From Sodiomyces alkalinus F11 (lineage: Eukaryota; Ascomycota; Sordariomycetes; Glomerellales; Plectosphaerellaceae): a stretch of DNA of 64,000 bases. The position numbers and the translations under genes are program-made. Within the stretch, counting starts at the first letter, position 1. Every line of letters starts with the position of its first letter. Under the pieces are notes generated by a model, which made no database searches, was not told where the DNA came from, and saw only the letters and a list, made by a program, of their open reading frames with translations. Positions 2,557 through 55,025 of this stretch are shown one piece after another. The DNA lies in assembly GCF_003711515.1 (NCBI RefSeq), contig NW_021167082.1, positions 1,853,691-1,917,690 of the forward strand, given 5' to 3'.

Positions 2557-3815
2557 TTACTCTACCACTTCCCCCTCCTCCTTTAACTCCTCCTTTTACG
2601 AGGCTATACTATCCTCGGCAGCACCTACCTATAACTCCTCCGGAAAAGGAGCTACGGCGAGCGCGGCCTCGGGAGTAGCCCCCGGATTATTACCCGCGGT
2701 AAGGGGAGTCACGGCCACGTAGTGCTTATACACGCGGCGTACGGAGTAAGAGAGGTTACGAACCTCTTACGATATTATAGTAACGTCGTTATTCTTATCC
2801 TCTAGTTTTTACAATACTTCCTTAAGCGTCTTATCCACGCTACGTATAAAGGTAGCGATATTATTAAGGGCTTATACTATACTTACCTAGAACTCGGTAA
2901 TAGCGGACGGGGCGGTGGCGGATAACGGGGCGGCGCGGGTAAACGGGGCGGCGGCGGGAGCGGGAGTAGCGGCGGGAGCGGGAGCGGTAATAGGAGGGGC
3001 GGTAACGGGAGGGGAGGCGATAGCGGGAGTAGGGGACTATAACGGGCCGGCGACGTTTTTACCTAACTTAGCTAGGCCGAGGGCGACCTAAAACCGACCA
3101 TAAGTATCCTAGAACTAGCGGCGATTCTACACGGAAGAATTAGTATAAAGACTACTAAGCGAAGGGTAGGTATAAACTTATATCCTTATCGTTAGTATCC
3201 TTATCGTTAGTATCCTTATCGTTAGTATCCTTATTTATAAGACGAGCGGTATCCTATAAGGCGTTAACGGCGTTATAGGCGGCGGGCGGGAGCTATATTA
3301 CTCGTAAGTCGCGGTTATTATACGTATAACTAGCACGCCTACCTTAGAATACTTATAAGTACGGTATAAGTACTCGTAATATTTAGCGTCGGCCTTAGCC
3401 GCGCTAGGGCCCGACTAGTAGTAACACTTAACACTATATTCCTATTTATACTACTAAGTAGCACACTATACGTAGAGGGCGAGGCGATAAGGGCCTAGCG
3501 GGTTCTTAGGTACGCGTTATTTCTTAGCGGGGGGGGGGGGGGTTAGAGTCTACTTATCGTTAGTTACGGCCGACCTCGTAACCCATAATAATAAGGGCCG
3601 CGAAGTTATATCGTTATCACTATTACCCTTATAAGGGCGTTTACTAGGCGAGGCGAAATTAGATATCTACGGATAATTAGCTACGGCACGACACTATAGG
3701 TAAGCGGCGTGCTAACTTATACTAAGGAGGACGTGGGCAGCTTAAATAATAAGCTATTACTCGGCGACGTTAGTTATACTATTACCGGACCTATAAGGTA
3801 TCTTAGAGCTACTCA
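2557..3815 (-). pseudogene. antisense ORF of A1, unknown function
   Basis: This is a long degenerate reading frame opposite to pol, between the chromodomain and the 3' LTR. Read on the minus strand it has a stretch rich in Cys-derived Tyr (KYYEYLYRTYKYSKV, near 3342-3392) suggesting a lost zinc-binding cluster. A Pro/Ala-rich middle follows near 2900-3060, then a probable coiled coil (SVDKTLKEVL, KLEDKNNDVT), then an acidic C-terminus (KEELKEEGEVVE) and a stop at 2557. Copy B has the colinear frame at 20641-21910, so it belongs to the element. A run of 14 G at 3529-3542 disturbs the frame. No enzyme family was recognised; a nucleic-acid-binding or gag-like accessory protein is only a guess. 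Confidence 0.6.
3181..3235. repeat. 15-bp tandem repeat within the A1 antisense ORF
   Basis: The unit TATCCTTATCGTTAG begins at 3181, 3196 and 3211, with a partial fourth at 3226. Fifteen bases keep the antisense frame (a five-residue Asn-Asp-Lys-Asp-Thr repeat). Copy B has a single unit here, so the expansion is specific to A1. Confidence 0.9.
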
Positions 3816-3893
3816 CGATATAAAAACTAATAAAAACAATCGGAAAAATAGAAGCTATAGAAGAGGAAGAACATAGTAAAAAACGAAGAGTAG

Positions 3894-4416
3894 TGGGAGG
3901 TTTATTTTACTACCCTTCTTACGCCGTTTAGGTGGAAGGAATAACCCCCGGTTATATATTCGGCAGGCACGTTATTAATAATACGCACGTATACCGGCGA
4001 GGAACTCGCGATAGCACCGCTATATAAGACCCCCTTTATGCTATTTTAGCCCTAAAAGAATCTTAGCTGCCGCGGATTACCTCCTTTTAAAGAAGCCTTT
4101 AATAGAATCGAATAAAGGAGGTTATTTTCAGATTATACACGGTGTGGCCAGGGGCTATACAAGGTCACGACCGCACGACTACGATATAAGGGCGACCTCG
4201 CCGCCTCCGGCGGGGGGGGGGGAAATTACGGGCTATAGCCCGCGGAATAGTCCCCGGTAGTAGCCGGGACTAAAAAGCACGGACCTCTAGCGAGGCCCGT
4301 GCGATCCTATATATACTTAGCCGTCTACACACCGTGCAGACTTTTCCTTTCCTTCTTTCCTTCCTTAGTTCGAATAATCTATATTGTCGGCCTCAATACG
4401 TGAACAACTTTTAACA
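3894..4416 (+). repeat. 3' LTR of gypsy A1
   Basis: About 523 bp, matching the LTR of copy B (21990-22512) along its length at the same size. It starts TGGGAGG after a purine-rich tract and ends TTTTAACA. A third partial copy in reverse orientation lies at 9857-10047. It holds a TATATAAG-like box near 4020 and G-run 4211-4220. The left border is set by the TG and by equal length in B, so it may be a few bases off. Confidence 0.8.
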
Positions 4417-4559
4417 AGCCGTCACACTAACTCGGTAATAAATATATCGGCCTAATTAAGATAACGGTCCCGGTCTTAGTAACAGGTCTAGACCCGCCTA
4501 GGGCACTAGGAGGTATCTCTTAACCCTAACCGCCCGGTATAATACCGGCTAACCCGACT

Positions 4560-20465: not shown

Positions 20466-20640
20466 TAGTATACTACAGAGTTATAGACACGAATAAGGCT
20501 AATATAGCAGCGAGGAGGATAAAGACCGAAACTAAGATTATATTAGGGTTATACGCCTGCTTTACTTACTTTATAAGTAATAAGGAACTAAGTAAAAAAT
20601 AAAAAGTAACTAAAATAACCTAAGTAGTTAAAAAGACTTA

Positions 20641-21910
20641 TTACTCTGTAGCGTCTCTTTTTTCTAACTCCTCCTCTTATAAGGCTATACCGCCCTCGGT
20701 AATACCTACCTATAACTCCTTTGTCGGCTTAAAGTAAGCTACTAACGTAGCCGCGCCCTCCTCGCTATTAACGATAAAAGGAGTAATACCCTCCTAAGAA
20801 GGAGCCGAAATAGGTATAGCCTTAGAGGCTACCTTTAAAGTACCGGCCGAGAGAGGGTATAACACGGTAAAATACTTATAAAAACGTCTCCTATAATAGG
20901 AGTGGCTATACACCTTTATCTTTATAAAGGCTATATTATTATTATAGTCCTTTAGCTTATACACGACGTCCTTAAGGGTTTTATCTATGCTATGTAGGGA
21001 TATAGCGATATTATTAAATACTCGTAGTAGACTCGCCTAGAACGTAGCGTTAGTAGGGGCGGCGGCGGGAGGCGGTATATCGGCGGGAGGCTAGGCGATA
21101 ATAGGGGGTATAGCGGCTAGGAGAGATAGCGTAACGGGGGCGGGAGTAAGGGCTATAGCGGGGGCAGGAGACTATAACAGCCCGGCTATATTCTTACCGG
21201 ATTTAGCTAGGCTAAGGGCAACCTAGAAATAACCGTAAGCTTCCTAAAATTAATAACGGTTTTATATAGGAAGTTAGCGTAGAGCCACTATACGGAAAGC
21301 AGATATAAACTTATATCCTTATTATCGGTGTCCTCATATATAGTATAAGTAGTATCCTATAGGGCGTTAGTAGCGTAATAGACGGAGGAAAAAAGCGATA
21401 TCGCTTATTAATCGTAGTTAATATACGTATAACTAGTATACTTACCTCGGAATACTTATAAGTACGGTAAAAGTACTTCTAATATTTAGCGTCGCTACGA
21501 GTAGTACCAGGACCTAACTAATAATAACACTTAACGGTATATTCCTGTTTATATTACCGAGTAGCGTACTACACATAAGGAGTAAGGCGGTAAAGGCCGG
21601 GCGGGTTCTTAGGAGCTCGGCGCTTCTTAGGGGGGGGGGGCAGGGTCTACTTAGTATTAGTTACGGCCGACCTTATAACCTATAATACTATAGACTAAAC
21701 TTATATCGTTATCGCTACTACCCGTATAGGGGCGCTTATTAGGAGGTTCGTGGTTAGATATCTACGAACGGTTAGCTATAGTACTAAGTCACGAGTAAGG
21801 GGCGTGCTAACTTATAATAATAAGGATATAGGCGGCCTAAGTTATAAGCTATTACTCGGCGATATTAGTTATACTGCTACGGGACCTACAAGGTATATCG
21901 GGGTAACTCA
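20641..21910 (-). pseudogene. antisense ORF of gypsy B, unknown function
   Basis: Colinear with the A1 antisense frame: minus-strand KNPPGLYRL, YATR, YKQEYTVKCYY, then the Tyr-rich motif YKYFYRTYKYSEV near 21450-21495, a Pro/Ala-rich middle, and a stop at 20641. The conserved Y spacing relative to A1, in spite of independent mutations, supports a real former coding sequence. It has an 11-G run at 21630-21640 at the same place as the G-run of A1. Function unknown. Confidence 0.6.
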
Positions 21911-23580: not shown

Positions 23581-23954
23581 TATTAGATAGGTAGTCACAA
23601 GGAGTGAGAAGGTAGTAGCGAGAGGGTCTAAAAGGGAATAGGCGTGGATCAAGTAGTGGTCACGGCTAGTCCGAACGTAGGTGGCCCTAAAGAATCAGAA
23701 TAATCGCTACCCTCTCTATACTAAGGAGGGGGCATTATACAAGCACTATATACTCCTAGGCTAATACTAGGGTAGTTAAACGGATATTATAAACGGATAT
23801 CTACGCCTAAGCCTAGGCCACGGCCCTATATAGTAGTATTAACCTAGGGTAGCTATAGCCACGTTAAGCCGGGCGCCCGGTCTTATCTATACGGGAACCC
23901 GTTATAGTCCTGTCGTGTATCCGGCCTTTATCTCCTAGGTAAGGGCACCTAGTA
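23581..23954 (-). repeat. 3' LTR of gypsy C
   Basis: 374 bp, start TATTAGATAGG, end CACCTAGTA; aligns fully with 31430-31803. Preceded by ACTCC. Contains the GC-rich GCCGGGCGCCCGG palindrome near 23868. Confidence 0.92.
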
Positions 23955-24679
23955 AGGCGACCTCCCCCAGAGTACTCCTATCCTTTGGAGCGGCCGGTAC
24001 CGGATAGGGTTATGTTTCCTAACTATACCCGGTGTCGGCCTATTTTCCCACTATCCTTTTATTATTAATCCTGTATACGACCCCGTGGTGGTCCTATTAT
24101 AGTCCTATCCTTAGTCCATCGCTCTATTTCTATAGTCCTTCTATCCTTAGTCCCGTATACTAACCCGTTATAGTCCTATAATAGTCCTATTCTTAATCCT
24201 TCGCTTCTATACTATAGCTAGTATCGGCCTCCCTTTAATCCGTATAAAGAACCGGCGCCGATATCCCTTTAATCTAAATAAAAAACCGGCGTTAATATCC
24301 CTTTAATCTAAATAAAAAGCCGGCGCCGTTATGTAATATATCTAAAAATAAGAATTTATCTCCTTCCTCTTATACCCCTTTCACCCTTATACCTTCTTTA
24401 TAGGCAGGAACAGTAACTATATACCCCTTAAGGGGGATATCTTCCTTAACGCCTCTATAACTCTATTCTCTTCCGTTTTCCTTCTTCTTCACGCCTCCGA
24501 TTTTTGATTTTTGTCGATATCCGCCACGTTCCGTAAATTAACCCTTATAGTGTTTTCCTTATAGGGGTAGGGCTTAATAGTTATTAATGTATTATAGCTC
24601 CTTAAGTTTCCTAATTTTTCCCTATTATCTTATAAGCATCCTTCTAATATCTCTCTATCCTAGGGGAAAATAACTTATA
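23955..24679. other. C non-coding region between 3' LTR and antisense ORF
   Basis: No gene seen. Holds many dispersed TAGTCCTAT words (about 24080-24200) and the 34-bp repeat array at 24231-24332. Confidence 0.6.
24231..24332. repeat. 34-bp tandem repeat, three units
   Basis: Units starting CCCTTTAATC begin at 24231, 24265 and 24299, each ending with a CCGGCGCC or CCGGCGTT word. Differences between units are mainly transitions. Confidence 0.9.
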
Positions 24680-24740
24680 TAGCTTCGCTAACTATCTTAT
24701 ATAGCCTCCTCCGCCGCTATTATACCTCCTAAGAAGACTG

Positions 24741-24774
<34 letters not shown>

Positions 24775-25985
24775 GCGGCCGGTATCTAAGCTAGCGGCTA
24801 GTAGCGTTTCTAAGAAGCGTAAGACCGCGACGACTATAGCGTTATCGTCGTCGACTACCCCTTATTAAGAGGTAGTGGATATTAGGGAAAGGGCCTCCGG
24901 GGGCTTAACCCTTAGGGACCCTTATTCCCGCTACGCCAGCTAACTAACTAAGATTAATTTTAGTAATAAAATATCTCGCCTACGGTTCGAGTCGTGCCGG
25001 CACTCTAGTATAATCTCCGCTAAGTATACTTTTTACTTTAGGCATAATAGTTATCGTTATAATAAGCTTCCTACCACGGGCCGTAACACGGCTATTTAGT
25101 TATAGAAGGTCTTTATCGTCGCCGCTATAAAGGATAGTCTTAACGATAGCCGTCGCGTAAGTTCTTTTTAGGGGGAAACCTAATATAGGCGTATACTAAC
25201 CGTGTTATAGACTATAGCTATAGAGTGATAGAATATCCTTAAGGCCTCGCTAGGTAAGCTTAAGAGGGAGATAACCTTTACCGCCGCCGATAAGTCTTAT
25301 ACCGCTTATCGGGCGAAGGAAGAAGTTAACGACGCCTGCTAGAAGACGGCGGACGAAATCCTTAAATCTCTCTAGGATTTAGCGTTATCGCTTCGCCGGT
25401 ATATCGATTAATAGGATTAATAGATAGCCGTGCAGAGACGCCTCGCTATTATCTTTAAAAGGGTTACTGCTAGTATAGTGTAGAACCCTCCGGTAATCCC
25501 CTCTTTTAATACACTACTAACTTCTCTTTCTCTCCTACCTTCTCTTCCTTAGCTAGATATCCCTCCTCCCGCCTTTACGCCCTCCGACTTATTCGCCGAC
25601 GATAATAATAATGATAACGGTATATACTAAGGCCCTCCTAACCCCTACGATATCCCTAAGTCCGAGCCCGCGACGCTTACCCCCGCGCCGAAGAAGAAGG
25701 CGCCGGCTAAGAAGAAGGCTACGCCTAAGAAGATAACGCCTTTAATACCTTTACGGAAGAAGAAGAAAAAGCAGTAAAAGGCTAAGCCTCTTATTATTCT
25801 CTCGGATAACACGCCGTCCACTAATAGGTAAGAGGTAGAAGGGAATAATACCTACGTAAGTAGAAGCGTTACTACCACGGGGCAGAGCGAGGTATATATA
25901 AAGGAAAACGGGGAAGGCCCTTAGGCATTTATACCCTTAGATTCGGAGTTAGAGGGTTACGCCGATGATCTATAACCGTAATAAG
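24680..25985 (+). pseudogene. antisense ORF of gypsy C, unknown function
   Basis: One plus-strand frame of about 430 codons with only scattered TAG/TAA stops, opposite to C pol. Order: SSAAIIPPKKTD, a poly-Asn run (24741-24774), KRPVSK and SKKRKTATT; a Cys/His motif KYTFYFRHNSYRY near 25018-25060; a probable coiled coil (KTADEILKSLWDLALSLRRY near 25350-25400); a Pro-rich stretch; a Lys-rich tract (APKKKAPAKKKATPKK, then RKKKKK near 25755); and a C-terminal motif TGQSEVYIKENGE near 25880. The D antisense ORF shares all these blocks. Basic, Cys-containing and coiled-coil features suggest nucleic-acid binding and self-assembly, which is inference. Confidence 0.72.
24741..24774 (+). repeat. trinucleotide run encoding poly-Asn
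   Basis: ATA/AAT triplet run, eleven or so Asn codons in the C antisense frame. Similar shorter Asn runs occur in the E and D antisense ORFs. Confidence 0.9.
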
Positions 25986-31429: not shown

Positions 31430-31803
31430 TATTAGATAGGTAGTTATAAGGAGTAAGAAGGTAGTAGCGAGAGGGTCTAAAAGGGAATAGGCGTGGATTA
31501 AGTAGTAGTCACGGCTAGTCCGAATATAGGTGGCCCTAAAGAATCAGAATAATCGCTGCCCTCTTTATACTAAGAAGGGGGTACTATATAAGCACTATAT
31601 ACTCCTAGGCTAATACTAGGGTAGTTAAACGGATATCGTAAACGGATATCTACGCCTAAACCTAGGCCACGGCCCTGTATAGTAGTATCGGCCTAGGGTA
31701 GCCGTAGCCACGTTAAGCCGGGCGCCCGGTCTTGTCTATACGGGAACCCGTTATAGTCCCGTCGTGTATCCGGCCTCTATCTCCTAGACAGGGGCACCTG
31801 ATA
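31430..31803 (-). repeat. 5' LTR of gypsy C
   Basis: 374 bp, start TATTAGATAGG, end CACCTGATA, followed by the TSD ACTCC (31804-31808). Pairs with 23581-23954. Confidence 0.92.
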
Positions 31804-39220: not shown

Positions 39221-42200
39221 ATCCTATAATCGGCCGTGTTACGGGTAAGGTGCCCTAAGAACTATACCCGCCTCGGACTACCCCTACTACTATACTAGTA
39301 AAGGTATATATATCCTTTCGCCGAGGTAGGGAATAGGTATAAACGTCGGCTCTCCTTAACGGAGGCGCCGATATTAACGTTTTAGATCGGTCCCTCCTAG
39401 GACCTAGTTAGGTTCCTAAGGGGTCCCCGGTTCCTTTATCCTGGATTACGGAAGGATAAACGAAGATAACCCTAGGGTCCACCTATAGGGTTATCGTTGT
39501 AACCGACTATTAGGGACGGAACAGAGTATAGCGCGCCGAATTTTATATTATAGACCTCGATCCCTAAAGCGTAAAGATTATCTTAGGGAGGCCGTAGCTT
39601 ACGGGCGTTAACCCTATAATTAATTAGCAGGATAGCATATAGACCTACCCCTTAAACTATAAGGAACTTAGTGTAGTCACGACTCTAAAAGCCCTATATA
39701 AAGCGGAAAGAGAAGCTAAGTCTATCCTTACTCTAACCTATCTAGGTTCTATAAGGGGCCTACGTATCGGCTATATTAGCCTTAACGGCCTAGGAAACCC
39801 TTCAGTAGGATATAGAGACGAATTCTTAGAAGACGTGGCCTACCGTGATCTAGACGGGGACCTAGTAGCTACCCCCACGCTACCGGAATAGTATTAAGAT
39901 TTCGCTAATATCTTTAATATTAAAAGCGCCGGGAGGCTACCGACGGACTAGTAATAGGATTATACGATTAAAATCGAGGAAAGGAAAAAGCCGCCCTATA
40001 GTCCTATCTACTCCCTCGCTGTATAAGAGCTTAAGGCGCTACGTTAGTACTTACAAGATACCGTTACGAAAGGGTGGATTAGACTATCTATTAGTCCGGC
40101 CGGCGCGCCTATCCTATTCGTCCTAAAGAAGGGCGGTAAGCTACGCCTCTATATTAATTATAAGGGGCTGAATAAGGTGATTATTAAGGATCGTACCCTA
40201 TTACCCCTTATCCACGAAATCTTAGATCGTTTATCTTTAGCGTAGTACTATAGTAAGCTAGATCTTAAGGATATATACTATCGGCTTTATATACGGGCAG
40301 GTAATAAATAGAAGACGGCGTTCCGTACCAATTACGGCCACTACGAGTACCTTATTATACTATTCGGGTTAACTAACACGCCCGTAAGCTTCTAGCGGTA
40401 TATTAATTAGGCGCTAATAGGCCTTATTAATACTATTTACGTTATATACCTTAACGATATCGTTATCTATAGTAAGGACTTAGTTACCCACCGCATGTAT
40501 ATCCACGAGGTCCTTATAAGGCTTAGGTAGTAGTCCATGTATACTAACCCTCATAAGTGCGAATTCGAGACTAGAGATATCGAGTTCCTCGGGTTTATCT
40601 ATAGCCTAAATAGGGTACGTATAGACCTATCCCGCGTTAAGGCTATCCGCGACTAGGAGCTCCCTAATAGTATTAAGAAGATACAGATCTTCCTAGGTTT
40701 TACGGATTTCTATAAACGTTTTATTCGGAATTACTCTAAGGTCGCTACCCCTCTTGTAGACTATCTAAAAGGGGGATATATTAGGGTCCTTATACTATCC
40801 CCGTAGGCCTAGTCTACGTTTAAGAAAATAAAGCTATTATTTTAGAAAGCGCCCGTGTTACGGCACTTTAATCCCGCTCTACTAATACGTATTAAGCCAA
40901 ACGCCTCTACTTTCGTAATTAGGGCCGTTATTAGTTAGCTCGAGGATAGGCTATAAAGACCTATCGTATTTATATCGCGTAAGCTTTATAGCGCTAAACT
41001 TAATTATAGCACGCCCGATTCTGAGCTTATAGCTATTATCGAGTCTTTTCAGATATAGCGCCACTACGTGGCCTATAGTCAGAGCCCTATTATCGTTCTA
41101 ATAGACTACCTAAACTATCGTTATCTACTAAATAAGCCTAAGCTAAAGGGATAGCACGTATAGTGGCTTAAGGAGCTTACCCTATTTGATTTTAAGATCC
41201 GGCACCGCCCGGGGACAATAAACCCCGTGGATAGGTTATTAAGGAAGCCCTAATATACGCCCTATAAGCGTGCCCTGGTTACTAACCGGGCTAAGGCGGT
41301 AGAGTCTTTTTCTAAGCGTTTTATAGGCTATATCGGGAACCAGGGTAATTCCCGTAATAGTACCCGTGCTGTTTTTCCCGCTCCTCCTACCTTAGTAGTT
41401 AACACGTAAGTGGATAACCTTTCTTTAGAGTCTTTTTCGAAGTATTCTGCCTTAGGCCTATATAGGACCTAGTATAGTACCCGCGCTATTCCCGCTCTTA
41501 ACTCCCCCTTACCGGAAAAGGTAGTAAAGGCGTAAACGGATAACCTTCCTATCTTAGAGTCTTTTTCGAGGTAATTTATTTTAGGCCTTATCGGGAACTA
41601 GCGTGGTTCCCGCACTACCCCCGATTCTAACCCTATTTTTCCCGCTCTTAATTTCCCTACCTTACTAGAAGAGGTAGTAGAGGCGTAAGCGGAAGACCCT
41701 TTTTACGCCCGTTAGCAAGAAGCCCACGGCGACGATACTATATACAGATAGTAGTCTAAGAGTAGTAATATCCTTCGTTTTAAGAATCGTGTTCTTATAC
41801 TAGACCACTCTAGCCTCCGTTAGAAGGTCCTATAGTATTTCTATAATAGACCTAGCGTAGGGCATTATAGGGTCGTAAGGACTAGTAAAGGAATTCGGAC
41901 TTCTACTTTTAGGATTATTTACCCAGGGATATCCGGCAGTTTATACCCATCTATACTATCTATTAACGCACTAAGCCGCGGTACTATAAGTCTTATAGCG
42001 AGCTAGCGAGTCTCCTAATACTCTAACACCCCTTTATAGAGATATCTATTAACTTTATCACGGGGCTACCGCTAGTCTATAGCCTAGGCTATAAACGGGA
42101 TACTATCCTTATAGTGATATACCGCCTAATAAAGTACTCGATTTATATCCCTTCGAGTAGTAGTCTAATAGCAGAAGGGTTAGCGGAGTCCCTATAGTAT

Positions 42201-43277: not shown

Positions 43278-43625
43278 TAATACGCCTCTAGCGAGGATAG
43301 CGTAAGCACTATCCGCTCTATGGCTAAGCGGATAGCGCGGGCGCTATTCGCGCGGATAGAGGATATATAGCTCTGGCACTATCCGTACGGATAGGGAACG
43401 TATAGCGCCCGGACCACGCGCGGGAATAGCGTAGTATAGATACTCGGGTTATAGTTAGACCGGACCGGTTAAGGGATATACCCTTAGCGCGGTTCCCCTT
43501 TTATTTAGCAGAAGATATCTTTATTCTACCCTTATATACTAGAGTAAAGGTCGCCCTTTTAAACCTTAGAAGCCCTAGGTCTAATAATACTGGCTAGCTG
43601 GGGGATATACCGGATAGGTATATTA
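43278..43625 (+). repeat. 5' LTR of gypsy F, palindrome-rich
   Basis: 348 bp, start TAATACGCC, end ATATTA. Contains a 9-bp hairpin (43309-43317 with 43327-43335, CTATCCGCT) and a perfect 16-bp palindrome CTATCCGTACGGATAG at 43379-43394. The CTATCCG/CGGATAG word recurs five times in about 90 bases. Confidence 0.92.
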
Positions 43626-43789
43626 AATAGTAGTAACTAAGCTTTTAGGTAAGGTTTATATACCGCTACCCGGCGCGAACTACGTATACTAAAACTAAAT
43701 AAGCACGTAGTATATTAATAGAATTATTATAACCGCTAGCGCGCTAGGCGAAGACACCTCTCCTTCGCTAGACTGAAGCGTGGAGTATA

Positions 43790-46200
43790 TAAGGACTATA
43801 ATCTACTACTTGCACGCAGGCTTAACGACTATACTAACCTCGCTAATAAGAACCTAACGTGGAACCTACGCTCCGCTATTATAACCGATATAAACCTCCC
43901 CGATAATTCCCCTTATCCGCGAAACGCTAAAAGCGCGAAAACCCTTATTAAGTTTTTAGACGATTACCCGGAGCTTATCGCTAATCTCCTCACGGCTAAA
44001 GATATAGCTCTACTTAATATAGTTAGGAGGGCTATATACGCTCCGGGAACCGCCGGCGTAAGCGGCCTAACCTTAAGAGAAAGAATTTCGCGATTAGAGT
44101 CCGTATCCGACGTATCCTACCTAAAGAAATAGGTCCGAATACCGGATAATATCGTGGACGCGTTTGAAAAATAGCTTAATAGAGAACCTACTTATAGGGA
44201 GATCCTAGCGATAATAGGAGAACTCCGCGACTTTAAGGGGAAGTAGCCTATCCGATTATTTACTATTAGTCCTACTCCCTAAACTAGGTTTAAAGCTAAC
44301 CTAATTAAACTTAGCCGTATCGTAAAGAGCTCCGCCGGGCTTAGCCTTACCTAGCTTACTATAATAGGGCTTAGGATATAAGAGCTAGGTAGTCTACGTT
44401 ATCTTAAGATTACGGGGGAGTTAGGGGAACCGTTATTCACTATAATAAAACCTACTATACTCTTAATCCGTCCTACTATAAAAATAATAGATAAGGAACC
44501 GGTAATTGAAAAGGAGGAACTAATATACTCCCTAAGTAAATCCTCCTTATACTAATCGCCTATATCCTACTTATGTCCTACTAAGACTATTACTTACTAT
44601 TTAATCGCTATAGAACGCTAAACGTCCGATACCCCTAGCTATACCTTTTCGGCCGACTATCTAGTTAACTCCGAGGGTATAGTATCTAGTACGGGTATAC
44701 CCGGACCTAGCCGATAAAACACTTGTTATAGTAGCGGATAGTAGGATAAAACGCCTCCTCCTCCTCCTCCGCCGCTAATATAGCCGCTAACTTACCCGCC
44801 CTTTACGGGCGGAGATTAAACGTATATACGCTAATCCGACTTACTCGCTATTATCGGGGAGTTTTAGCGCGGGGCGTAGCCGTAATAGCTTTAGCACCGC
44901 TTTAAGGCGGATAACCTTGGATATTTCGACCCGCCGATATACTTTACCGTAAGCCAGGATATCCGTACCGAAGGAACTAAGCTTATCTTCCTAGACGTGT
45001 TTTATTTCACGGATGCTATAGAGTAATACACCGGCCTAAACGCCGGGTATCGTAAGGCCTTTCCGCGTAGTATTACCTAATACCTTTCAAGCGAGGCCTT
45101 TAAATAGTTTATAAGTCTAGATAGCGGTAACTATATATTCTATAACTAATAAGCCACTCTAAAGGACTAAAAGGACGCTTTTAAAAGATAGTTCCGACTC
45201 CCGCGTAAAGAAGCTAAATATAAGCTACGCCGAGAAAAGTATACCCTAAAAGATATCGTTAACCGTTATAACCTCCGTGTGTTTACCGATAGAGTAGTCC
45301 GATTAGCTAAGGTAGCCGATAAACCGAAAGGGAAGTACTTATCTATTATTTAGGATAAGCTAAACGCTAACCTAATAGCGATAGTAGTTTACCCGGGACT
45401 TAAAATAAAATAGGCCGACTTTATAGATAACCTAGCTAGTCTAATACCGGGATAGTATCGGAATTATATATGAGGAATCTAGCGCTAGCTTATTAACCGA
45501 TATAATCTTACTAAGACTAACCGCGGAACGTATAACGCTCCGTTACCGGTTATAGTAGTTTAGTAGCTTACTCCGCGGTATTATAACCGATATTTTAGCC
45601 CGACGCCCGAGTATCGCTATACGCTTTAGCCTAACCATCGCTCCCCGGGACTAAGCTAGTTCCGTTGCTAGAGCGAAAATCGCGCGCTATTAGCACTAAA
45701 CGCTAATCGTTTTACTAATAATAAGGGTTAGCGACTCCTAACTAATAACGCTAACGAGTAGTCTAATTATCGGTACGGGGATTATCGCCGGGACTAACCC
45801 CGAGACTAGGTTAACGCCTCCGCCGAAAAGACCGCTACTAAGCCTATATCCGGAGATACTACCAACGTAAAGCCTAAGAACAAGTACTACTATACTAAGG
45901 TAGACTCCGAGGGTTTTATAGAATCCGAGGATAAGGATAACGCGGAAAATAAGCGGGGCGACTAACTATACTAGGTCGCCGATAGACCCGGATTTATACC
46001 TAAATATACCGATCTCTACTAGGTATACTAAGAGTACGGTAAATACTATTAACCTATAACATTAAATCTAGAGACTATCCGACAGGAGAAGACCTACTCT
46101 TAACCGTACTAATTAGAGAGGTAGGACGGATAGGACTTACCGCTAATTAACGGCGCTATTTAGGAAGTTAGGGATCACTTTAATAGTCCCTACGGGTATA
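43790..46200 (+). pseudogene. gypsy F gag
   Basis: Plus-strand frame of about 800 codons. N-terminal: TWNLRSAIITDINLP, TLIKFLDDYPELIANLL and AIYAPGTAGVSGL near 43860-44080. Pro-rich stretch (PPPPPPPL near 44750). Capsid-like core near 44950-45420 (TEGTKLIFLDVFYFTDAIE, NRYNLRVFTDRVVRLAKVADK). A basic Asn/Arg-rich end runs to about 46100. No clear CCHC knuckle was seen; a Tyr-rich KNKYYYTKV at about 45880 may be a relic. Stops are scattered. Confidence 0.72.
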
Positions 46201-49200
46201 CGTACGCCCGGATCTAAGCCTATAGTTCCCCTATAGGCGCGCTATTCGATATTTACGTTAACTTAGGAGCCTCCCGCTATATAGTAAGCTAGTAGCTCCT
46301 TAGTCGATTCCCCGATAAGTATATCGATTCCACTAAATACACTGTGTTATAGGGTATAGGATTAATAAAGACCCTAGGATAGGCTACCTTTACTATACTA
46401 GTTCGAGGCATAGTAAGTAATAAGACGAAGATTAGCCGCCTATATATCGGGGCTTAGGTTATACCTAAGCTTAACGCCGGTCTTCTCCTAGGATAGGAGT
46501 TTAACTATCCTAATAGTCTAGATATCCTTAATACGTAGGAAGCTATTAATATTAGCGCTTATTAAGATCTAACGGTTTCTATAAGAGTATTCGCTAAACG
46601 TTCTCTAATCTAGCGGAGACTTAAGGCTACTAAATGCTTAATTATTCCGCTATAAGCGTATAGGTTTATACCGATTAATAAACCCGATATTAGCCTTAAC
46701 TCCCTAGAGTTTTTTCCGGATATAGAAGGCTCCCCGAACTATATCCTTAGCGACTAAGCTATAATACCTATTTTTAACACCGATAACCGGCTATTAGTTA
46801 TTGTATAAGGCACTAAGCTAGGCTGTATAGAGCTATTCTACACGGATAGGTATTAGTATACCGACCGCGATAACGCTCGAGATATCCTACTTAAGCGTAT
46901 AAAGGAAGAACCGCCCGCTAAGGGCGAAGGGAATATCTTTTATAAGTATATTACTCCTAAAGGTAAGCTAGGTATCGCTAAAAGCCTAAACGCCCCTATA
47001 CAGATTACTAAAAAGGGAGTAATAATTTACCGGTATAGTAACCGCTTTATACGCCGGTTTAGTAGGATTATCGAGAAGTATCTAAAGGTTTAGACTAACT
47101 AAGGCGTTATCGATATATCTCCCGAGGAATATATAAAGGTCTTTTTAGTTAACGGATAGTATAATTAGAAGATTAGCTAGATGCTATACCCCCTTAGTCG
47201 CGACGATTAAAAGTTCTTAAATAAGACCCTTAATAAACTCTATAAGTAAGGACGAATAGAGTAGCTAATATAGCCTATACTATTCGGAGCCTTAGTATTT
47301 ATTATATAGCGAACCCTAAACGGGAAACGTAAAGGCCGGATAGTGGTTAACCTCTATACCCTAAATAAAGTTATTATTCCTAATACGTACCCGATACCGT
47401 TATAAGACGAGGTAATCCGCCGCCTTTAGGGGAAGAAGTTTATCTCCGTTATTAACGCCCGAGCCTTCTTCTACTAATTCCCGGTATATAAGCCGTACCG
47501 TAAAAGATTTACTATTATCTTATATCGGGGATAGGAATATTTAAAGGTCGCGCTTATAGGCTTCCGTAATTTACTAGCCTACGTCTAACGCTATATAGAT
47601 AAACTGCTTTAACCGTATAAGATATTCGCCGCCGCCTTTATCGACGATATCGTTATAGCCTCTAACACCGAAGAGGAATACGCCTAGTATCTAGAAACCG
47701 TCTTTTCGCTATTTAATCAAAAGCGGATCTTTATCTCCCCGGGTAAATCCTTTATCGGTTACCTATTAGTCTAGCTCCTAGGATTTAAGATCAACGCTTT
47801 AGACCTCTCTAATATAAAGGAACGCACCAAAGCCCTATAAAGGATCCGTCCACCGATATCGCTTTAATCGCTTAAGTAATAGATTAGTATAACCGGATAG
47901 CTATAGCACCTTATTCCGAGGTTCGCCTACCGAATTACCTCCCTTTAATAACGGAAGACTACTCTACTCGCTAAAGCTTATTAGCTGGGAAAAGATAAGG
48001 GGTAAGCCTATAAAGCCTATACTAAATAAACGGTATTTAAACTCACGGCCGAAGAACTAGCGTCGTTTAAGGATATTACGGGCACTTTTACCTCCGAGGT
48101 TTACCTTTTCTATTATAACCTAGGAAAGATCCTCTTTATTTAACTAAACGCCTCTAAGGAGTACGGGTTCTTAGCTATACTATTCTAACTTATTAATAAG
48201 ACTAAATAGCTTATTAAGGGTAGTATTAGTAAGACCCTTATCTATCCGGTACTCTATATTAGTAAGGGCCTTAATACCGCTAAGTAAAAATATTAGCTAA
48301 CCGAATTAGAGGTTACCTGCTTAGTATAGGCTATTCATAAGACCCGGACTATTATATAGTCCGCCCGTTATAATACGACTATTATTCTTACGGATTACGC
48401 CGCTATTATCGGAATTATAAAATTAACTACGCTATCTAGTACCGATAAGACCCGGCTAAATATAAAGCTTATCCTCTCCTCGGAGTTTTTTAGCTAGTTT
48501 TAGTTAGATTATCGGTATATCCCCGGTAAAATAAATATTATAGCCGACGCCCTTTTACGGCTACTTATAACAGATCCTCCGGAAGCGGAAGATAGTAGCG
48601 AGCTAGAACGGATTTAGCACGATTAGGCTATTTAGTACTTCTCTAAGCTTAAGATAGACGCTGACCTATAATAAAGAATTAGCGATAGTTACGCTAATAA
48701 TGCTAAATAAGGACTTATCCTTACCTAGCTATAAAACTATAATTCGCCGGTTAAAATCCCCTTTAAGTTAGATAAAGGGCTCCTTTATTACCTAAAATAA
48801 AGCGGGAAGTATCGCCTTTATATCCCTTTCTCCCTATATTAGGAGTTTATTTAGGCCGCCTACGATAAGCGCTATTACTTTAGCGTTAAGCGAACCTAGT
48901 ACGAGTTAATTAGCCGATTTATTATTCCTAAACTCCGTAAGGAAATTAAGTCTTATATCGCTAATTACTCGACGTATACTACTAATTAGATTAATCGCTA
49001 ACGCCCGCTTAGCGAGATATAGCTAATTATAACTCCCCCTATCCTATTCTATACTATCGCTATAGACTTTATTATCGGCTTACCCAAGGTGCCCTTAGCC
49101 GGTTCTCCTTAATAAAAGGAGGGGTTCCCTTTATTCGACTCCCTCCTTACGGTAACGGATAAGTTCACGAAGGCTACCCTTCTTATCCCTAGCTATAGCA

Positions 49201-50470
49201 CCTACACGGCGGAGGAATAGGCTTATATCCTCTTCTAATTCCTCTAGCTCGGTAATTAGAGTATCCCTAAAGGTATTATCTCGGATTATAACCCTAAGTT
49301 TCTATTAGCCCTTTAGACGGCACTTTAGAAGGAAGCTAGTATACTACTTAGGTTCTTAATAGTATAGTACCCGTAGACGGATAGGCTATTAGAACGGAAG
49401 AACTAGATAATTAAGATCGCTATTCGTATATTCCTCGCTACTTACCCGGGTATCCTATAAATAAAGGGTATTATCGCCTTATAGTTTAACCTAAATAACG
49501 CCTTTAGCGAAGTCCTAGGCTACTTACTAAACGAACTACTATACGGTGTCTAAACTAATAGCCCCCTCGATATAATCGGAGATACTAACCTATAATTTGC
49601 CCGAGAACTTTTTTAGGAAGACGCTAAATTATCTATCGCCTTAGCTTAGATATATATAAAAAGGCTATACAATAAAAAGTATCGTAGTATTCGGTTCGCC
49701 CTAAAGGACTTTATCTTCGTTAAGCTCGGGTATAGCTACTCGCTACCTAATAAACCGTTTACTAAACTCGGTTAATAATAAATAGGCCTATTTAAGGTTA
49801 AGGAGTAAGTCTTACCGCTAGTATACTATTTAGATCTCCCCGCTACACTTAACGTCTACCCCGTTATTAGTATTACTTATCTTTAGCTAGCACGGGTATT
49901 AGGATTAGACCCGTTCCCGGGTCGGGAAACCGATAGTAATCCGGTTCGCCCCGGTAACCCGGACGATAACGGGTATAAATAATAAGACCTATACGAGTAC
50001 TATAAGATCGACGCTATCCTAGATAAGAGAATTACCCGGAAAGGGCGAGGTAAGCCTTATACCGAGTACTTAATTCGGTGGAAAGGCTAGCTAAGTTATT
50101 AGAATATATAGATACTAAAGGAAGCGATAGACGTACTAAAAATAGTCGAAGCCTTTAAGGCAGGATAAAGGGCCTTAAAGATACTACGAGCTACGATAAA
50201 AAGGATAACGCCGGATAAAACCCTTAAGCCGGGGGACGTTAAAGGAATAGATAGGTTAAAAAATACTCGGAGTAAAGAACCTTTAAGGGGCTTTAATATA
50301 GCCCTATAGCCTTATTAGGCACCGAATAAGGAAAGTAAGTTACCCGAGGTAACCACGCGTTATTCACGTATAGCGAACGACCTCGAACTCGGGCGAGGGA
50401 AAGTATAAGGGTTATCCGATCTCTAAATAATAGGCACGCGAAAGGAAAACAACGCGGAATAATAATAAAA
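46201..50470 (+). pseudogene. gypsy F pol (protease, RT, RNase H, integrase)
   Basis: Protease near 46245 reads DIYVNLGASRYIVS (catalytic DTG changed to NLG). RT near 47200-47800: QGRIEQLIQPILFGALVF, VVNLYTLNKVIIPNTYPIP, FISVINARAFFYQF, and FIDDIVIAS near 47640 with both catalytic Asp intact. RNase H near 48100-48560 (FIQLNASKEYGFLAI, YIPGKINIIADALLRL). Integrase near 49050-49500: TIAIDFIIGLPKVPL, LLTVTDKFTKATLLIP, KGIISDYNPKF, then QYPQTDRLLERKNQ, so the catalytic Asp residues appear retained. Fewer catalytic hits than D, but frequent stops. Confidence 0.88.
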
Positions 50471-50699
50471 GTAGTATAAACCGCGTTATTCTACTCAATT
50501 AGCCCGCCCTCCTACCCGGTTATAAAAAATTCCCTAAACGCCCGGCCACGCTTATTAATCTTCTCCTACTCTTTATAGCTATCTTCGTAAGTATCGTGGT
50601 TATTAGTCTTCGTATAGAACTACTATTATAGCTTATAAGGTAAATAGCTAGTAGTTCCCTAGTTATTATCTCGTGGTATCTTATATATACCCTTTTTTC

Positions 50700-52308
50700 T
50701 CTTAGTTCCTTAGGCGCTCGTAACGTTCTCTCTCCGTTTATAGTAAGTCTCCTAAATTACTACGTGGTTAAGTACCTAATAGACGTTTATCGGTTAAAGG
50801 ACTAAGAGTTCGTGCAGGAGTTCTTTAAATACTTCTCTAAGGGAAAGACCGGGGCCGGGCTTACCTTCGACGGATACTTTAGAGCTATTACGCTATTTAG
50901 AGATAAAAACGGTATTATTATAGGTTTATAGTCTATTAGCGTAGTGTTTAATTAAGAGCGCTGTGATAATAAGTTAATAGTCGCGTCCTACCGCTAATAA
51001 GCCCTCGATACCGGGTACGATAACCCCTTTAACTATCGACTCCGCCGTATAATATTCGCCCTAGTAAAGGAGGCGGAACGTGTAGTTTTAGTTAACCTCG
51101 CGTAGTAGCTTATTACCCTATACCCCTAGCCGTAGTTTCTGCTAAATAATAATATCGACGCCGCTAACTAGCCCTAATACTCCTAGACGTTCGAGTAATA
51201 CCTCGCTATAGCTTATTATAACGCCCCTAAGGCCTTTAATAGCTAATTCCTCCCTAACCCCCTATCCCGCCGCCGCCTAGGAACTATAGTTACCCCCTCG
51301 GGTTCGCTTTTACCGCGTAGTAATACCGCGCTGGTCGCCTAGACTCCGACTACTAGTAAACCCCCCCTATAGCTACGCGATACTATTACACTAGCTCGCG
51401 TCCTATAATTAGTCTATAAACTAGCGTCGCTAAGCCTAAAGCTAGTAAACTTAGTAGAATATCTGCAGAATAACGAAATTAGTAGTATAGACTTCCTTAA
51501 CTATATAGGCGATTACCCCTTTAGTATTAAGCCTCGTATGGTGGCTATTTAAGATTTCCTTTAATCGCTATAGAACGTCCTAGCGCTAGTTATATAAAGC
51601 GCCGCGGCCGTCCTCGCCGGATTAAGATTAGGTGCTCCGGTATTACCCGTCGCTAGCGTACTATCGCCTATCGCGGGCACTAAACGCCCTTACTAGGGCT
51701 ATACGTCGTTACCTTTAGCGAAGCGTATATTTATATAGTTAAGCTATAAGATCCTATACACTTAGGCGGCTATTAGCTTCGCAGCTAGCCTAAATAACCC
51801 CTCTTAGCTTATATACTATAATAAGTTTACGTATAGCGAATAGATATTTAGGGAAATTAGATAGCGCTCGCGCGCCGCTATACTACCGCTCCCGGTCGCT
51901 ATCTAGGCGGCTATATTCCTTAATAAGTATATACTAAACCACGATATATAGAACGCCGCTAAGCTAAGCCTACTCGTTAGTTTCTAGTATATAGGTAAAC
52001 TAGTATACCTCGCTAAACTAAACACGCTTAGCGTGTTAGAGGATACTAAACGGGAATATCTAGCCTAACGCTATATAGATAACGCTAACTTAGCTAAGGC
52101 AGTTATCCGGCGTATAGTAGTCATCGCCCGTTACTATAACTCCTATAGGAAGAAGGGAGTTATAGCCTCCTATAAGATCTTATAGTAAACGGTCGAAGAA
52201 GAGACTAATCCTATAGAGGGTGATATAACCACTATCCTTAGACGCGAGATATCGCGCTAGGGCTTCCCGGATACTAAGCCATAGCCTCCTAAGGTTATAG
52301 AGATCTAA
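50700..52308 (+). pseudogene. third ORF of gypsy F (sense strand, unknown function)
   Basis: A coherent plus-strand frame of about 530 codons between integrase and the 3' LTR, ending at a TAA at 52306-52308. It begins near LNYYVVKYLIDVYRLKD; then GLTFDGYFRAITLFRDKNG near 50860-50910; a Leu/Ala-rich middle (ARVLQLVYKLASLSLKLVN near 51390); SPIAGTKRPYQGYTSLPLAK near 51670; and a C-terminus with RREISRQGFPDTKP near 52240. No transmembrane or fusion-type pattern clear enough for an envelope protein, and no known domain recognised. Its position is that of env in vertebrate-type elements, but the function is unknown. Confidence 0.65.
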
Positions 52309-52762
52309 GGCTAAAGATTAAAAGCAGGGCGTGGTTTAGGTACTAGGTTTTAGGCGTATTAGTTTAATAGGAGTATTTAGGCACGGGCGTAGGAATACGC
52401 TATAGGAAATAGTTAGTTAGTCGCTTCGCTTTCTCCCGTTTACCTTATTTTATTTTTATTTTTTTCTTTTTTTTCTCGCCGTTCCCCTTTCGCTCCTTAT
52501 CGCTACCTAATAATTTACTTTCCCCTCGTATATCTTATTATACGGAGTAGTAGTTAGCGTAGTTAGCGTAGTTAGCGTAATATATTATATTACTATAACC
52601 ACCTTTTCCTTTTTATTATAAGCACCACCGCGCCTATAGTTATTAAAGTTATAACCGGGCGGCGCCGCCTTCCTAAAAGCGTAGGAGTTTATACGCCTCG
52701 CGCTATTAGTTCTGTGTAGGTTAACGCCCGCGGTACGTAGGGCTTTTATTACCCGGGGTATA
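52309..52762. other. F non-coding region before the 3' LTR
   Basis: No gene seen. Contains a T-rich polypyrimidine block (about 52430-52480) and three GTTAGCGTA repeats (about 52550-52580). The minus-strand open frame 52585-52794 crosses into the LTR and is not supported. Confidence 0.55.
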
Positions 52763-53110
52763 TAATACGCCTCTAGCGAGGATAGCGTAAGCATTATCCG
52801 CTTTATAGCTAAGCGGATAGCGCGGGCGCTATTCGCGCGGATAGAGGACGTATAGCTCCGGCACTATCCGTACGGATAGGGAATATATAGCGCCCGGACT
52901 ACGCGCGGGAATAGCATAGTATAGATACTCGGGTTATAGTTAGACCGGACCGGCTAAGGGATATACCCTCGGCGCGGTTCCCCCTTTATTTAGTAGAAGA
53001 TATCTTTATTCTACCCTTATATACTAGAGTAAAGGTCGCCCTTTCAAACCCTAGAAGCCCTAGGTCTAATAGTACTGGCTGGCTAGGGGATATACCGGAT
53101 AGGCATATCA
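52763..53110 (+). repeat. 3' LTR of gypsy F
   Basis: 348 bp, start TAATACGCC, end GCATATCA, followed by TSD CTAAT (53111-53115). Pairs with 43278-43625. The 16-bp palindrome is intact at 52864-52879. Confidence 0.92.
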
Positions 53111-53589
53111 CTAATACAACCCGTTAGTAGGCCGTGGAGATAGATTCTTAGGTAAGGACCCCCCCTTAACCTAGACGGAAACTATATAGGCGTTATCGCC
53201 TCGGTTATTATTTTCTTCCTTTTAAGCTTTTTACTCTTAATCTCTATTCTTCCTTTTTAAGCGTCCTGCTTTTAATCTCTATTCTTCTTCTTAAACGTAA
53301 CGCTCCCGCCCCCGACCCCGTTCCTCTTCTTTTAGTATAATGGGGTATCGCCCTTAAAGTCTATTTTCCTTTACTCCTTCTTCACTTAGCCGTCATAATT
53401 AAGACACGATTCATATTATAATAGGAGTATAGTTAGGGACCGTTAGGGTTATAATAGGAATACCCTAAAGCTAGTTAAAAAAAAAAGGAAAAACCTAACC
53501 CGAAGGCTAGTAAAAAACCTGAAAAAAAATAACCGTTCCTCTATATATACTATCACGGCCCCTTTAGGGCGTCCTTAAACCCCACTAAC

Positions 53590-55025
53590 TTATCGTCTAG
53601 AGGGGTAGGCTCCCGCCTAGCCACCTCGCCGTTATTATCCTCTATATATACCTGGCTCTGCCCTGCGGCAGTAGCCGTTACCCCCTCTTACCCGCCACCC
53701 GCGGATAGCGTCGAAGGATAAAAAGACAGCGGCGTCTTCGCTTTCTACTACTTCTTCTTCTTCTTCCCTAATAAAGGAGTCGAGGGGGTTAAAGCCTTCT
53801 TCCCCTTACCCTTCTTTACTAATAAGGTCGGTACTATATCGTTATCGTTAGGCACTTTATAAGAATCCGGGGGACCCTAAGGACCTTACGGTATAAAGCC
53901 TTAAGGTTACGCAGGACTACCGTTACTAAATATATCGTTACCTATAAAGATAACCCCCGCGGGGGCTAAGGCAGACCCTAAGAGTATAGGCATATTACCT
54001 TCTACGGCCTAAGCCTAGGCCAGGTTAAGAGCAGCTCTCTACTCGAAGGCAGTAGCCGTATATTGCTAGGCCGTGAGGTCGCGCTAATATAACGCTAGGC
54101 GTTATTACTCGATATTAAGCCGTTACTACTTAACGGCAAAGCGCTACTACTATAACCCGATAAATTACTTAAGGAGCGACTCTATACTATTAAGCCTTTT
54201 ATGGATATCTTCCGCCGTTTTCTAGCGGGTGTCGGTAACTTCCATAGCTTAACGCCGAGTAGTAATAGCTTCCTTAGCAGACGACCGGTTAACCTCTAGC
54301 GTCGCTTAACCTAGAACCTCTCTAAGAATAACCTAGCACCGAACTACTATAGCCTAGTACTATATAAGATTAGTAAAGAGACTATATAGGACTAGTAAGG
54401 GGATACGGTTAACGGGAAGGATTATAACACTTATATAATAACTCTTGTTTAGGCTACCTTTCTCGATAGTAATAACTAAAACCTTTTATAGCTACTCGGT
54501 AGTATTCTTACTAGTAATAGGAAGCTACTATATATAATAGACTAACTAAACCACGGAGTAGTCTATAAAGGGAGGAGCTATAGGGATAATAAAGATATAT
54601 AAAGGAAGACGAAGATATATAACTTACTACGCGGTATTTAAGGCTATTATGCTTAGAGTAGTAGTGGCATTTATTTATACGGCGACCGTTATCGGCGTGA
54701 CGGTATATCTTAGCCTTAATAGTATACGCCTTTTCCTTAAAGTTAATCGTTACTAACTTACCCGTATAACATATATAAGGGGCCCTTAGATCCCCGCCTA
54801 TACCGATATCTATTACCCTTTAACGTGGAGTAACCGATAGCGTAGTAGTCGATAACGACGTAGCCGTAATAGGAGTAAGAGGCTCTAGCGTAGCTAGCTA
54901 CGGGGCTAACTATTTAGCGGACTATAACGTTAACGCCGTAACCACGATCTTAATCCTCTTAGAGGACCGCGTTATACTCGCGGGAGTAGCGGCGCGTTTA
55001 TTATTTTTATTTTCCTAAGAAGGTA
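53590..55025 (-). pseudogene. antisense ORF of gypsy D, unknown function
   Basis: Minus-strand frame, opposite to D pol, between the F insertion and the D 3' LTR. Order from its N-terminus: NKNNKRAATPAS and SKRIKIVVTALTL (near 55000-54940); a Cys/His motif KCHYYSKHNSLKY (54634-54682); a probable coiled coil with KTAEDIHKRLNSIESLLK (near 54200); a Gly/Pro-rich stretch (near 53890); KKGKGKKALTPSTPLLGKKK (near 53770); and GQSQVYIEDNNGE (53645-53690) near the C-terminus. The block order and spacing match the C antisense ORF. Stops at Gln positions make it inactive. Function unknown; nucleic-acid binding is inferred from the basic and Cys/His parts. Confidence 0.72.

What the first reader, a model, noticed from the sequence alone, without database searches (positions are those of the whole stretch)
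2557..55025. Antisense ORF between pol and 3' LTR in four different gypsy families
A1/B, C, D and E each carry a long degenerate frame on the strand opposite to pol, always between the end of pol and the 3' LTR (2557-3815, 20641-21910, 24680-25985, 53590-55025, and 22870-23575 plus 31804-32758). The same position and orientation in two clear pol lineages (A/E and C/D) suggests an old, conserved accessory gene with its own transcription, not a chance frame. Antisense ORFs are known in some plant gypsy elements such as Grande and RIRE2; I do not recall a described fungal family with this protein. It is the best candidate here for an undescribed system.
Basis: partly seen in the sequence, partly recalled or inferred. 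Interest (0 to 1): 0.85.

Follow-up and report, generated by a model that had tools for sequence, protein, structure and literature searches.

The report
Spliced antisense gene in fungal retrotransposons
Several families of dead retrotransposons in this fungus each carry an extra gene with introns, written backwards behind their replication genes; antisense genes of this kind are known from a few plant and fungal elements, but what they do is still unknown.

Summary
The antisense frames are real. In D, E and A1/C a gene lies on the strand opposite to pol and 3' of it. Three lines agree: almost no frame-shifting length change inside predicted exons, much in introns and flanks; non-RIP dN/dS lowest in the antisense frame in 6 of 6 exon segments (0.13-0.60); conserved donor-branch-acceptor sets on the antisense strand of all three alignments and none on the sense strand. 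D, E and a third type F share a phase-0 intron; E and F share another with the same 30-codon exon between them. The protein has a Cys/His cluster; A/C shows a coiled-coil-like stretch, D/E a basic tail.

Corrections: three families here, not four (A1 and C are one); lineages are A/C and D/E, not A/E and C/D. A/C and D/E proteins match in exon layout but not detectably in sequence. Pieces 22870-23575 and 31804-32758 are not confirmed. A fungal precedent exists: antisense brtn of Boty (Zhao et al. 2011, seen only as cited); homology to it could not be tested. The scored copies are broken by RIP. Function is inferred: most likely a nuclear, DNA- or RNA-binding regulator of the element.

The parts
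24740..25156 (+). D antisense gene: exon with N-rich start, conserved block and Cys/His cluster, up to intron 2 (intron 1 of E and F is absent here)
   Evidence: dN/dS 0.41, lowest of six frames; near-zero frame-shifting length change in ref 331-660; 28 copies aligned
25157..25210 (+). D intron 2 (54 nt here, 53-67 nt in 28 copies)
   Evidence: GTAAGT or one-step variants at the donor, CTRAY branch in 28 of 28, TAG in 24 of 28, lengths in all three mod-3 classes; half of the copies shift frame here
25211..25912 (+). D antisense gene: exon after intron 2, ending in Lys-rich tail (end approximate, up to about 25950)
   Evidence: dN/dS 0.42, lowest of six; frame-preserving length changes
24632..24704 (+). 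D upstream intron (probable); an exon further 5' is implied but not resolved
   Evidence: ATAAGT 19 of 28, CTRAY 28 of 28, TAG 25 of 28, lengths 55-76
23581..23950 (-). D 3' LTR (partner 31430-31799)
   Evidence: 92.4% identical pair
28744..29223 (-). D reverse transcriptase, on the strand opposite to the gene
54628..55014 (-). E antisense gene: exon with N-rich start, conserved block and Cys/His cluster (exon may begin near 55031)
   Evidence: dN/dS 0.55, lowest of six, weak alone; Cys/His columns
54525..54627 (-). E intron 1 (103 nt here, 82-125 nt in 20 copies)
   Evidence: GTAAGT 17 and GCAAGT 3 of 20, CTRAY 18 of 20, TAG 20 of 20, 13 different lengths
54435..54524 (-). E middle exon, 30 codons
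   Evidence: 90 nt in 19 of 20 copies; same length as in F
54360..54434 (-). E intron 2, same place as in D and F
   Evidence: donor ATAAGT 9, GTAAGT 8, GTGAGT 2 of 20; CTRAY 17 of 20; TAG 15 of 20
53751..54359 (-). E antisense gene: exon after intron 2, Lys-rich tail
   Evidence: dN/dS 0.33, lowest of six; stop columns resolved in 16 of 22
55032..55088 (-). E upstream intron (probable)
   Evidence: ATAAGT 17 of 20, CTRAY 19 of 20, TAG 17 of 20, lengths 51-61
55703..56047 (+). E 3' LTR (5' LTR 37370-37714)
   Evidence: 88.4% identical pair
40123..40599 (+). E reverse transcriptase; RNase H, SH3_Tf2-1 and chromodomain follow on +
43278..53108 (+). Another LTR element nested in E between pol and the antisense gene (strand not examined)
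   Evidence: LTR pair 43278-43623 / 52763-53108, 93.9%
3349..3576 (-). A1 antisense gene: Cys-rich exon
   Evidence: dN/dS 0.13, mirror frame 0.20, other four frames 1.4-2.4
3254..3342 (-). A1 intron before the middle exon (probable; a donor 14 nt upstream also fits)
   Evidence: TAG 14 of 14, CTRAY 11 of 14, donor GTAAGT 6 of 14 plus variants, lengths 89-90
3182..3253 (-). A1 middle exon (72 nt here with a tandem repeat; 42 nt in 12 of 14 copies)
3127..3181 (-). A1 intron before the long exon
   Evidence: ATAAGT 14 of 14, TAG 11 of 14, CTRAY 11 of 14, lengths 53-55 in all mod-3 classes
2542..3126 (-). A1 antisense gene: long exon, P/A-rich then coiled-coil-like stretch
   Evidence: dN/dS 0.60, lowest of six, weak; frame-preserving length changes; PDB hits only to coiled coils and designed proteins
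21452..21718 (-). C antisense gene: Cys-rich exon
   Evidence: profile iE 2.8e-37, the window copy being one of its rows
21262..21314 (-). C intron before the long exon
   Evidence: aligned to the A1 intron
20626..21261 (-). C antisense gene: long exon
   Evidence: profile iE 6.1e-74, the window copy being one of its rows

Best explanation
Each of these Ty3/gypsy families carried a true accessory gene on the strand opposite to gag-pol, between pol and the 3' LTR. Shown here: protein-coding selection in the antisense frame, a frame interrupted by conserved phase-0 spliceosomal introns on the antisense strand, and a Cys/His cluster followed, past the introns, by a long exon (coiled-coil-like in A/C, Lys-rich tail in D/E). 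Inferred: the gene was transcribed by RNA polymerase II from its own promoter in the 0.6-0.8 kb between gene and 3' LTR or in the LTR, spliced in the nucleus, and made a nuclear nucleic-acid-binding protein that regulates the element, for example its LTR transcription, copy number or chromatin, in the way HBZ does in HTLV-1. Because the introns run antisense to the genomic RNA, they cannot be spliced out of it and so survive each round of retrotransposition; this explains how an intron-bearing gene persists in a retroelement. The scored copies here are dead by RIP. My odds: real antisense spliced gene 0.95; nuclear regulator 0.45.
For: Frame-shifting length change per 60-nt window is 0-0.07 in D exon windows (one exception 0.29), 0-0.05 in E exon windows and 0-0.07 in A's long exon, against 0.50 (D intron 2), 0.40-0.65 (E intron 1), 0.36-0.43 (A) and mostly 0.25-0.6 outside the gene; exons vary in length by multiples of three. 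dN/dS without RIP-type differences is lowest in the predicted frame in 6 of 6 segments: 0.13, 0.60, 0.41, 0.42, 0.55, 0.33; pol control A1 v C 0.36. Conserved intron-like sets: A 6, D 1 (intron 2 of D just missed the cut-off), E 7 rows at 4 donors on the antisense strand; 0, 0, 0 on the sense strand. Shared introns of E and F enclose exactly 90 nt in both. Of the 90 places with a scored RT within 6 kb (66 E, 8 D, 16 A), 86 lie 3' of it on the opposite strand; 86 of 150 scored RT places have such a gene. Cys/His columns. Coiled coil.
Against: No transcript was seen. The mirror frame on the sense strand is always second lowest and its interval overlaps. Segments were chosen after looking at sliding windows, and pairs of copies are not independent. 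Between D and E the DNA-level test is noisy and does not single out the frame. In A, 14 of 17 majority-stop columns show no copy with a RIP precursor. A loose intron pattern is not enriched in the window as a whole (2 found, 6.24 expected). No relative was found in protein, Pfam or PDB searches beyond coiled-coil-type matches. Nothing tested bears on nuclear location or regulation.
Confidence: 0.72

Rival explanations
1. The antisense strand matters as RNA: the element makes a spliced antisense transcript that controls it through double-stranded RNA or interference, and the protein is secondary.
For: Antisense transcription is implied by the conserved introns. PMC7264820 (passages) raises this for plant elements.
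Against: Selection is on amino acids and on frame, which an RNA-only role does not need.
Confidence: 0.12
2. The conserved frame is a sense-strand gene (mirror frame), such as an env-like or gag-like ORF.
For: The sense mirror frame is second lowest in dN/dS in 6 of 6 segments, and D v E protein similarity is equally strong in the mirror frames.
Against: The antisense frame is lower in 6 of 6; intron signals and frame switches occur on the antisense strand and none of the conserved sets on the sense strand.
Confidence: 0.03
3. A host gene or another mobile element captured once and carried along, without function in the retrotransposon.
For: No relatives with known function were found; the type-F copy was not found beside a pol.
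Against: Purifying selection within D, E and A during spread; same side and orientation in 86 of 90 places with a scored RT near.
Confidence: 0.1
4. Chance frame or by-product of RIP composition; no gene.
For: No long open frame in the window; stops in nearly all matched pieces.
Against: Frame preservation, dN/dS and strand-specific intron signals. RIP-type differences were left out of the dN/dS.
Confidence: 0.02

Closest known systems
brtn of Boty-like elements (Botrytis cinerea, also reported for Sclerotinia sclerotiorum; Zhao et al. 2011, not held, known here only as cited in PMC8365987, PMC7264820, PMC4227169, PMC5987419)
   Same: Fungal Ty3/gypsy element with chromodomain pol and one additional gene antisense to gag-pol, between pol and 3' LTR
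   Different: Sequence, introns and domains of BRTN were not available, so homology is untested; here the gene is in at least two pol lineages
Antisense aORFs of plant Grande (gene23), RIRE2 and PvRetro13
   Same: Same place and orientation; Grande's product is nuclear and transcribed from its own promoter (PMC7264820, sections and passages read)
   Different: No sequence link; the review text held has no occurrence of 'intron', so introns are not mentioned for them there
Retand antisense TRP28 ORFs (PMC11963269, passages read)
   Same: Same place and orientation in nearly all clusters, proposed DNA binding and regulation
   Different: TRP28 (PF04195) was not matched by the frames scanned here; described as single ORFs
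HBZ of HTLV-1 (a spliced antisense transcript named in the abstract of PMC2099442, search listing; the rest recalled)
   Same: Spliced antisense gene read from the 3' end; coiled-coil-containing regulator (recalled)
   Different: Retrovirus of people, bZIP protein; no sequence comparison made; analogy of working only

Membership tests
Antisense accessory ORF class (aORF-3R) | Antisense to gag-pol | tested here: met
Antisense accessory ORF class (aORF-3R) | Between pol and 3' LTR | tested here: met
   D and E by LTR pairs; for A1 and C only 3' of pol was shown
Antisense accessory ORF class (aORF-3R) | Present in many copies and conserved like other element proteins | tested here: met
   86 of 150 scored RT places have one; dN/dS 0.13-0.60 against 0.36 for pol in one pair
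Antisense accessory ORF class (aORF-3R) | Antisense transcript from its own promoter | not testable with these tools
   No RNA data; conserved introns imply an antisense transcript
BRTN of Boty | Sequence homology to BRTN | not testable with these tools
   BRTN sequence not held; Zhao 2011 not held; protein searches found nothing
Retand TRP28 antisense ORF | PF04195 domain | tested here: not met
   No match at E <= 1 in the 9 frames and the 24 alignment members; RIP damage lowers sensitivity
Env-like sense aORF | Sense orientation | tested here: not met
Chromovirus (host element of the gene) | Chromodomain at the end of pol | tested here: inconclusive
   E met; D only SH3_Tf2-1, two of three frames scanned; none seen for A1 and C in the stretches scanned

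The most novel reading that the evidence does not exclude
One ancient antisense gene with spliceosomal introns is shared by both pol lineages (and perhaps by Boty as brtn), kept for long because its introns are invisible to splicing of the sense genomic RNA; it is a fungal counterpart of HBZ. The sequences have drifted beyond recognition, but the layout Cys cluster exon, phase-0 intron, short exon (14 or 30 codons), phase-0 intron, long exon remains in A/C, E and F.
Probability: 0.4. Interest if true: 0.7.

Novelty: new variant of a known kind. Interest (0 to 1): 0.55.

Why it matters
Antisense genes behind pol are known in plant elements and in Boty, and the review read here calls their function unknown. 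This genome gives hundreds of copies of two or more such genes, a defined exon-intron layout, a Cys/His cluster and evidence of selection, so a search for un-RIPed relatives and a test of function become concrete. Introns that lie antisense to the genomic RNA would also explain how a retroelement can keep an intron-bearing gene.

Tried and rejected
Pfam on the frames: no match near a cut-off. Public protein searches with D/E profiles A2 and A3 and the A profile A8: 7994, 7994 and 7996 candidates scored, none at E <= 0.01, 1 and 1. These negatives are weak: RIP removes exact words, the first search was swamped by runs of N and K, and I ran no control that the collection holds fungal element proteins. 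A scan of viral contigs could not start.

Stop-column test: meant to show that antisense stops have RIP precursors in other copies. It favours the antisense frame after intron 2 in D (9 of 14 resolved, other five frames 26 of 82) and E (16 of 22, others 27 of 81), is even elsewhere and fails in A (3 of 17); the whole-region version is not clear either.

Homology of A/C to D/E: hhalign probability 0.3% twice; 178 and 455 of 2000 shuffles reach the observed score, against 1 of 2000 for D v E. Rejected as shown; kept as the novel case on layout only.

Generic intron pattern in the whole window: below chance. F beside a pol: no Pfam match on the minus strand of L052 1-9000, so F is a gene type, not a shown element family.

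They found brtn and the plant cases and no other fungal antisense gene; most subscription papers are not held.

Miscounts corrected on recheck: the acceptor of E intron 1 was first put 3 nt too early; and 96 place it at 54525. The frame reading through 'A-Y-N' in A, first taken as coding, is intronic in the layout.
Full report
Setting. The window is C4:1853691-1917690 of an unnamed 43.4 Mb, 22-contig genome. It is heavily RIPed: CpA 0.20 and TpG 0.15 of expectation, TpA 1.82. Long open frames are gone. LTR pairs define D (23581-23950 / 31430-31799), E (37370-37714 / 55703-56047) and an element nested in E (43278-43623 / 52763-53108). E pol is on +, with RT, RNase H, SH3_Tf2-1 and a chromodomain; D pol is on -; A1 and C pol are on +. 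D and E share 67% of RT-RNase H residues; A1 and C share 82% of DNA over pol. So the lineages are A/C and D/E.

Copies in the genome. The D frame matches 106 pieces (these include weaker hits to E-type copies), the E frame 129, the A frame 102; the tool calls such counts lower bounds. E: 65 of 66 places with a scored RT within 6 kb lie 3' of it on the opposite strand, 1 does not, 40 had none near. D: 8 of 8, 28 had none near. A: 13 of 16, with 2 opposite but 5' and 1 same strand, 71 had none near. Of 150 RT places 86 have such a gene behind them and 64 have none. Copies of one family are not independent, so this shows that the gene is a regular part of the element, not selection.

Coding. I aligned 20 E copies, 28 D copies and 14 A copies. 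In 60-nt windows, the share of copies outside the commonest mod-3 length class is 0-0.05 across E exon windows, 0-0.07 across D exon windows (with one at 0.29, D ref 301) and 0-0.07 across the A long exon up to ref 1291, where lengths vary by multiples of three (up to 7 distinct lengths). It rises to 0.50 in D intron 2, 0.40-0.65 in E intron 1 and 0.36-0.43 in the last A intron, and is mostly 0.25-0.6 beyond the ends of the gene. The A stretch upstream of ref 450 is irregular (0-0.50) and E intron 2 varies mostly by multiples of three.

Selection. Leaving out RIP-type differences and codons with stops, pooled dN/dS over pairs below 85% identity (A 87, D 235, E 90 pairs) in six frames gives for the predicted antisense frame: A Cys-rich exon 0.13 (bootstrap 0.08-0.21; mirror 0.20; others 1.4-2.4); A long exon 0.60 (mirror 0.71; others 0.84-1.11); D before intron 2 0.41 (0.45; 0.97-1.60); D after 0.42 (0.52; 0.72-1.30); E first exon 0.55 (0.64; 0.70-1.04); E after intron 2 0.33 (0.39; 0.74-1.39). 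It is lowest in 6 of 6, the mirror frame always second. As a control, pol of A1 v C gives 0.36 in its own frame. Limits: the segments were picked after the sliding-window scans, codons were resampled as if independent, and the D v E comparison at DNA level is noisy and does not single out the frame.

Introns. Conserved sets of donor ([AG]TRAGT in 60% of copies), CTRAY branch (70%) and YAG (60%) at fungal spacing were sought on both strands of each alignment. Antisense strand: A 6 rows (at 6 donors, two of them alternatives for one acceptor), D 1, E 7 rows at 4 donors. Sense strand: 0 in A, 0 in D, 0 in E. Intron 2: D 53-67 nt, branch in 28 of 28, TAG in 24 of 28; E 63-75 nt, branch 17 of 20, TAG 15 of 20. 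D's intron 2 is not in the list because only 16 of 28 copies keep a donor of that strict form. Both, and F, follow the codons for S-R-R/Y at phase 0. Intron 1 of E: GTAAGT 17 and GCAAGT 3 of 20, TAG 20 of 20, 13 lengths from 82 to 125 nt. E and F enclose exactly 90 nt (30 codons) between introns 1 and 2; D has the same codons without intron 1. F's intron 1 shows no clear branch motif by eye. Upstream introns are likely in D and E as well. A/C has an 89-90 nt intron (TAG 14 of 14), a short exon (42 nt in 12 of 14), and a 53-55 nt intron (ATAAGT 14 of 14, TAG 11 of 14). Many donors read ATAAGT; a preceding T with RIP of TpG would explain it. The loose pattern alone is not rarer or commoner than chance in the window (2 found, 6.24 expected), so the case rests on conservation across copies, strand contrast and shared position.

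Protein. E: Cys seen in 9, 9, 1 and 6 of 20 copies and His in 8, 13 and 8 of 20 at positions spaced C-x-H-x9-C-H-x-C-x2-H-x4-C, nearly all other copies having Tyr; D keeps C-x-H and a later His; A has nine columns where some copies show Cys and most show Tyr. TGY to TAY and CAY to TAY are the changes RIP would make, so these read as a degraded zinc-binding-like cluster; metal binding is inference. The A long exon matches coiled coils, mostly designed ones (best E 1.5e-4); D/E has only a keratin at E 0.93. D and E end in Lys-rich tails.

Are A/C and D/E one gene? Sequence says no detectable link. Layout is alike: Cys cluster exon, phase-0 intron, short exon, phase-0 intron, long exon (for A the phase-0 reading needs the donor at ref 609, while a donor at 595 fits the motif too). 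I leave this at 0.4.

Mechanism. Conserved antisense introns imply an antisense RNA polymerase II transcript; selection implies a protein. The gene lies 0.6-0.8 kb from the 3' LTR in D and E, where its promoter should be (inferred). Its introns are reverse-complemented in the genomic RNA and so are not removed by retrotransposition (reasoning, not tested). A Cys/His cluster with a basic tail or coiled coil suggests a nucleic-acid-binding, oligomeric nuclear protein; regulation of the element is the most likely role by analogy with HBZ, Grande gene23 and the proposals for Retand (PMC7264820 section 7 read; PMC11963269 passages). None of this is shown here.

Known or new. [quoted passage not shown] PMC8365987 passages; PMC4227169 and PMC5987419 passages). 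Zhao et al. 2011 is not held. What seems new here, within the 10 searches run, is the conserved set of introns and the layout; the review and the Retand paper have no occurrence of 'intron' in the search listing, and I cannot say whether BRTN has introns. Hence 'new variant of a known kind'.

Noticed in passing
window 3816-3754 and 21911-21849 (-): A 63-nt intron-like stretch (GTGAGT or ATAAGT ... CTRAY ... TAG) with nearly constant length (63 nt in 13 of 14 copies) just 5' of the A/C gene; intron or regulatory element.
   Followed up: partly
window 24600-24749 (D ref 151-300): A frame other than the gene's has dN/dS 0.29 across the probable upstream intron of D; not explained.
   Followed up: no
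L051 7997-9300 (G000:C2, near the contig start): A third gene type (F), 44-52% identical to D in its pieces, with both introns of E; no pol found on the minus strand of C2:10001-19000.
   Followed up: partly
L053 5270-8230 (G000:C4:1461k): A 987-aa open frame with reverse transcriptase and RNase H in GC-rich DNA with little RIP, LINE-like, beside WD40-repeat frames.
   Followed up: partly
window 25992-26178: Three 61-63 bp tandem copies between the end of the D antisense gene and pol.
   Followed up: no
window 23315-23575 (+): Weak match (iE 0.28) to the A Cys-rich exon just before the D insertion; D may have landed in the antisense gene of an older element with pol at 33-36 kb.
   Followed up: partly
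window 25130-25210 region of D copies; 3533 and 4212: Runs of G (about 5-14) that vary in length between copies inside D intron 2, and G runs in A1/C.
   Followed up: no
window 61404-61736: Imperfect short tandem repeats of a CTATTACTA-like unit.
   Followed up: no
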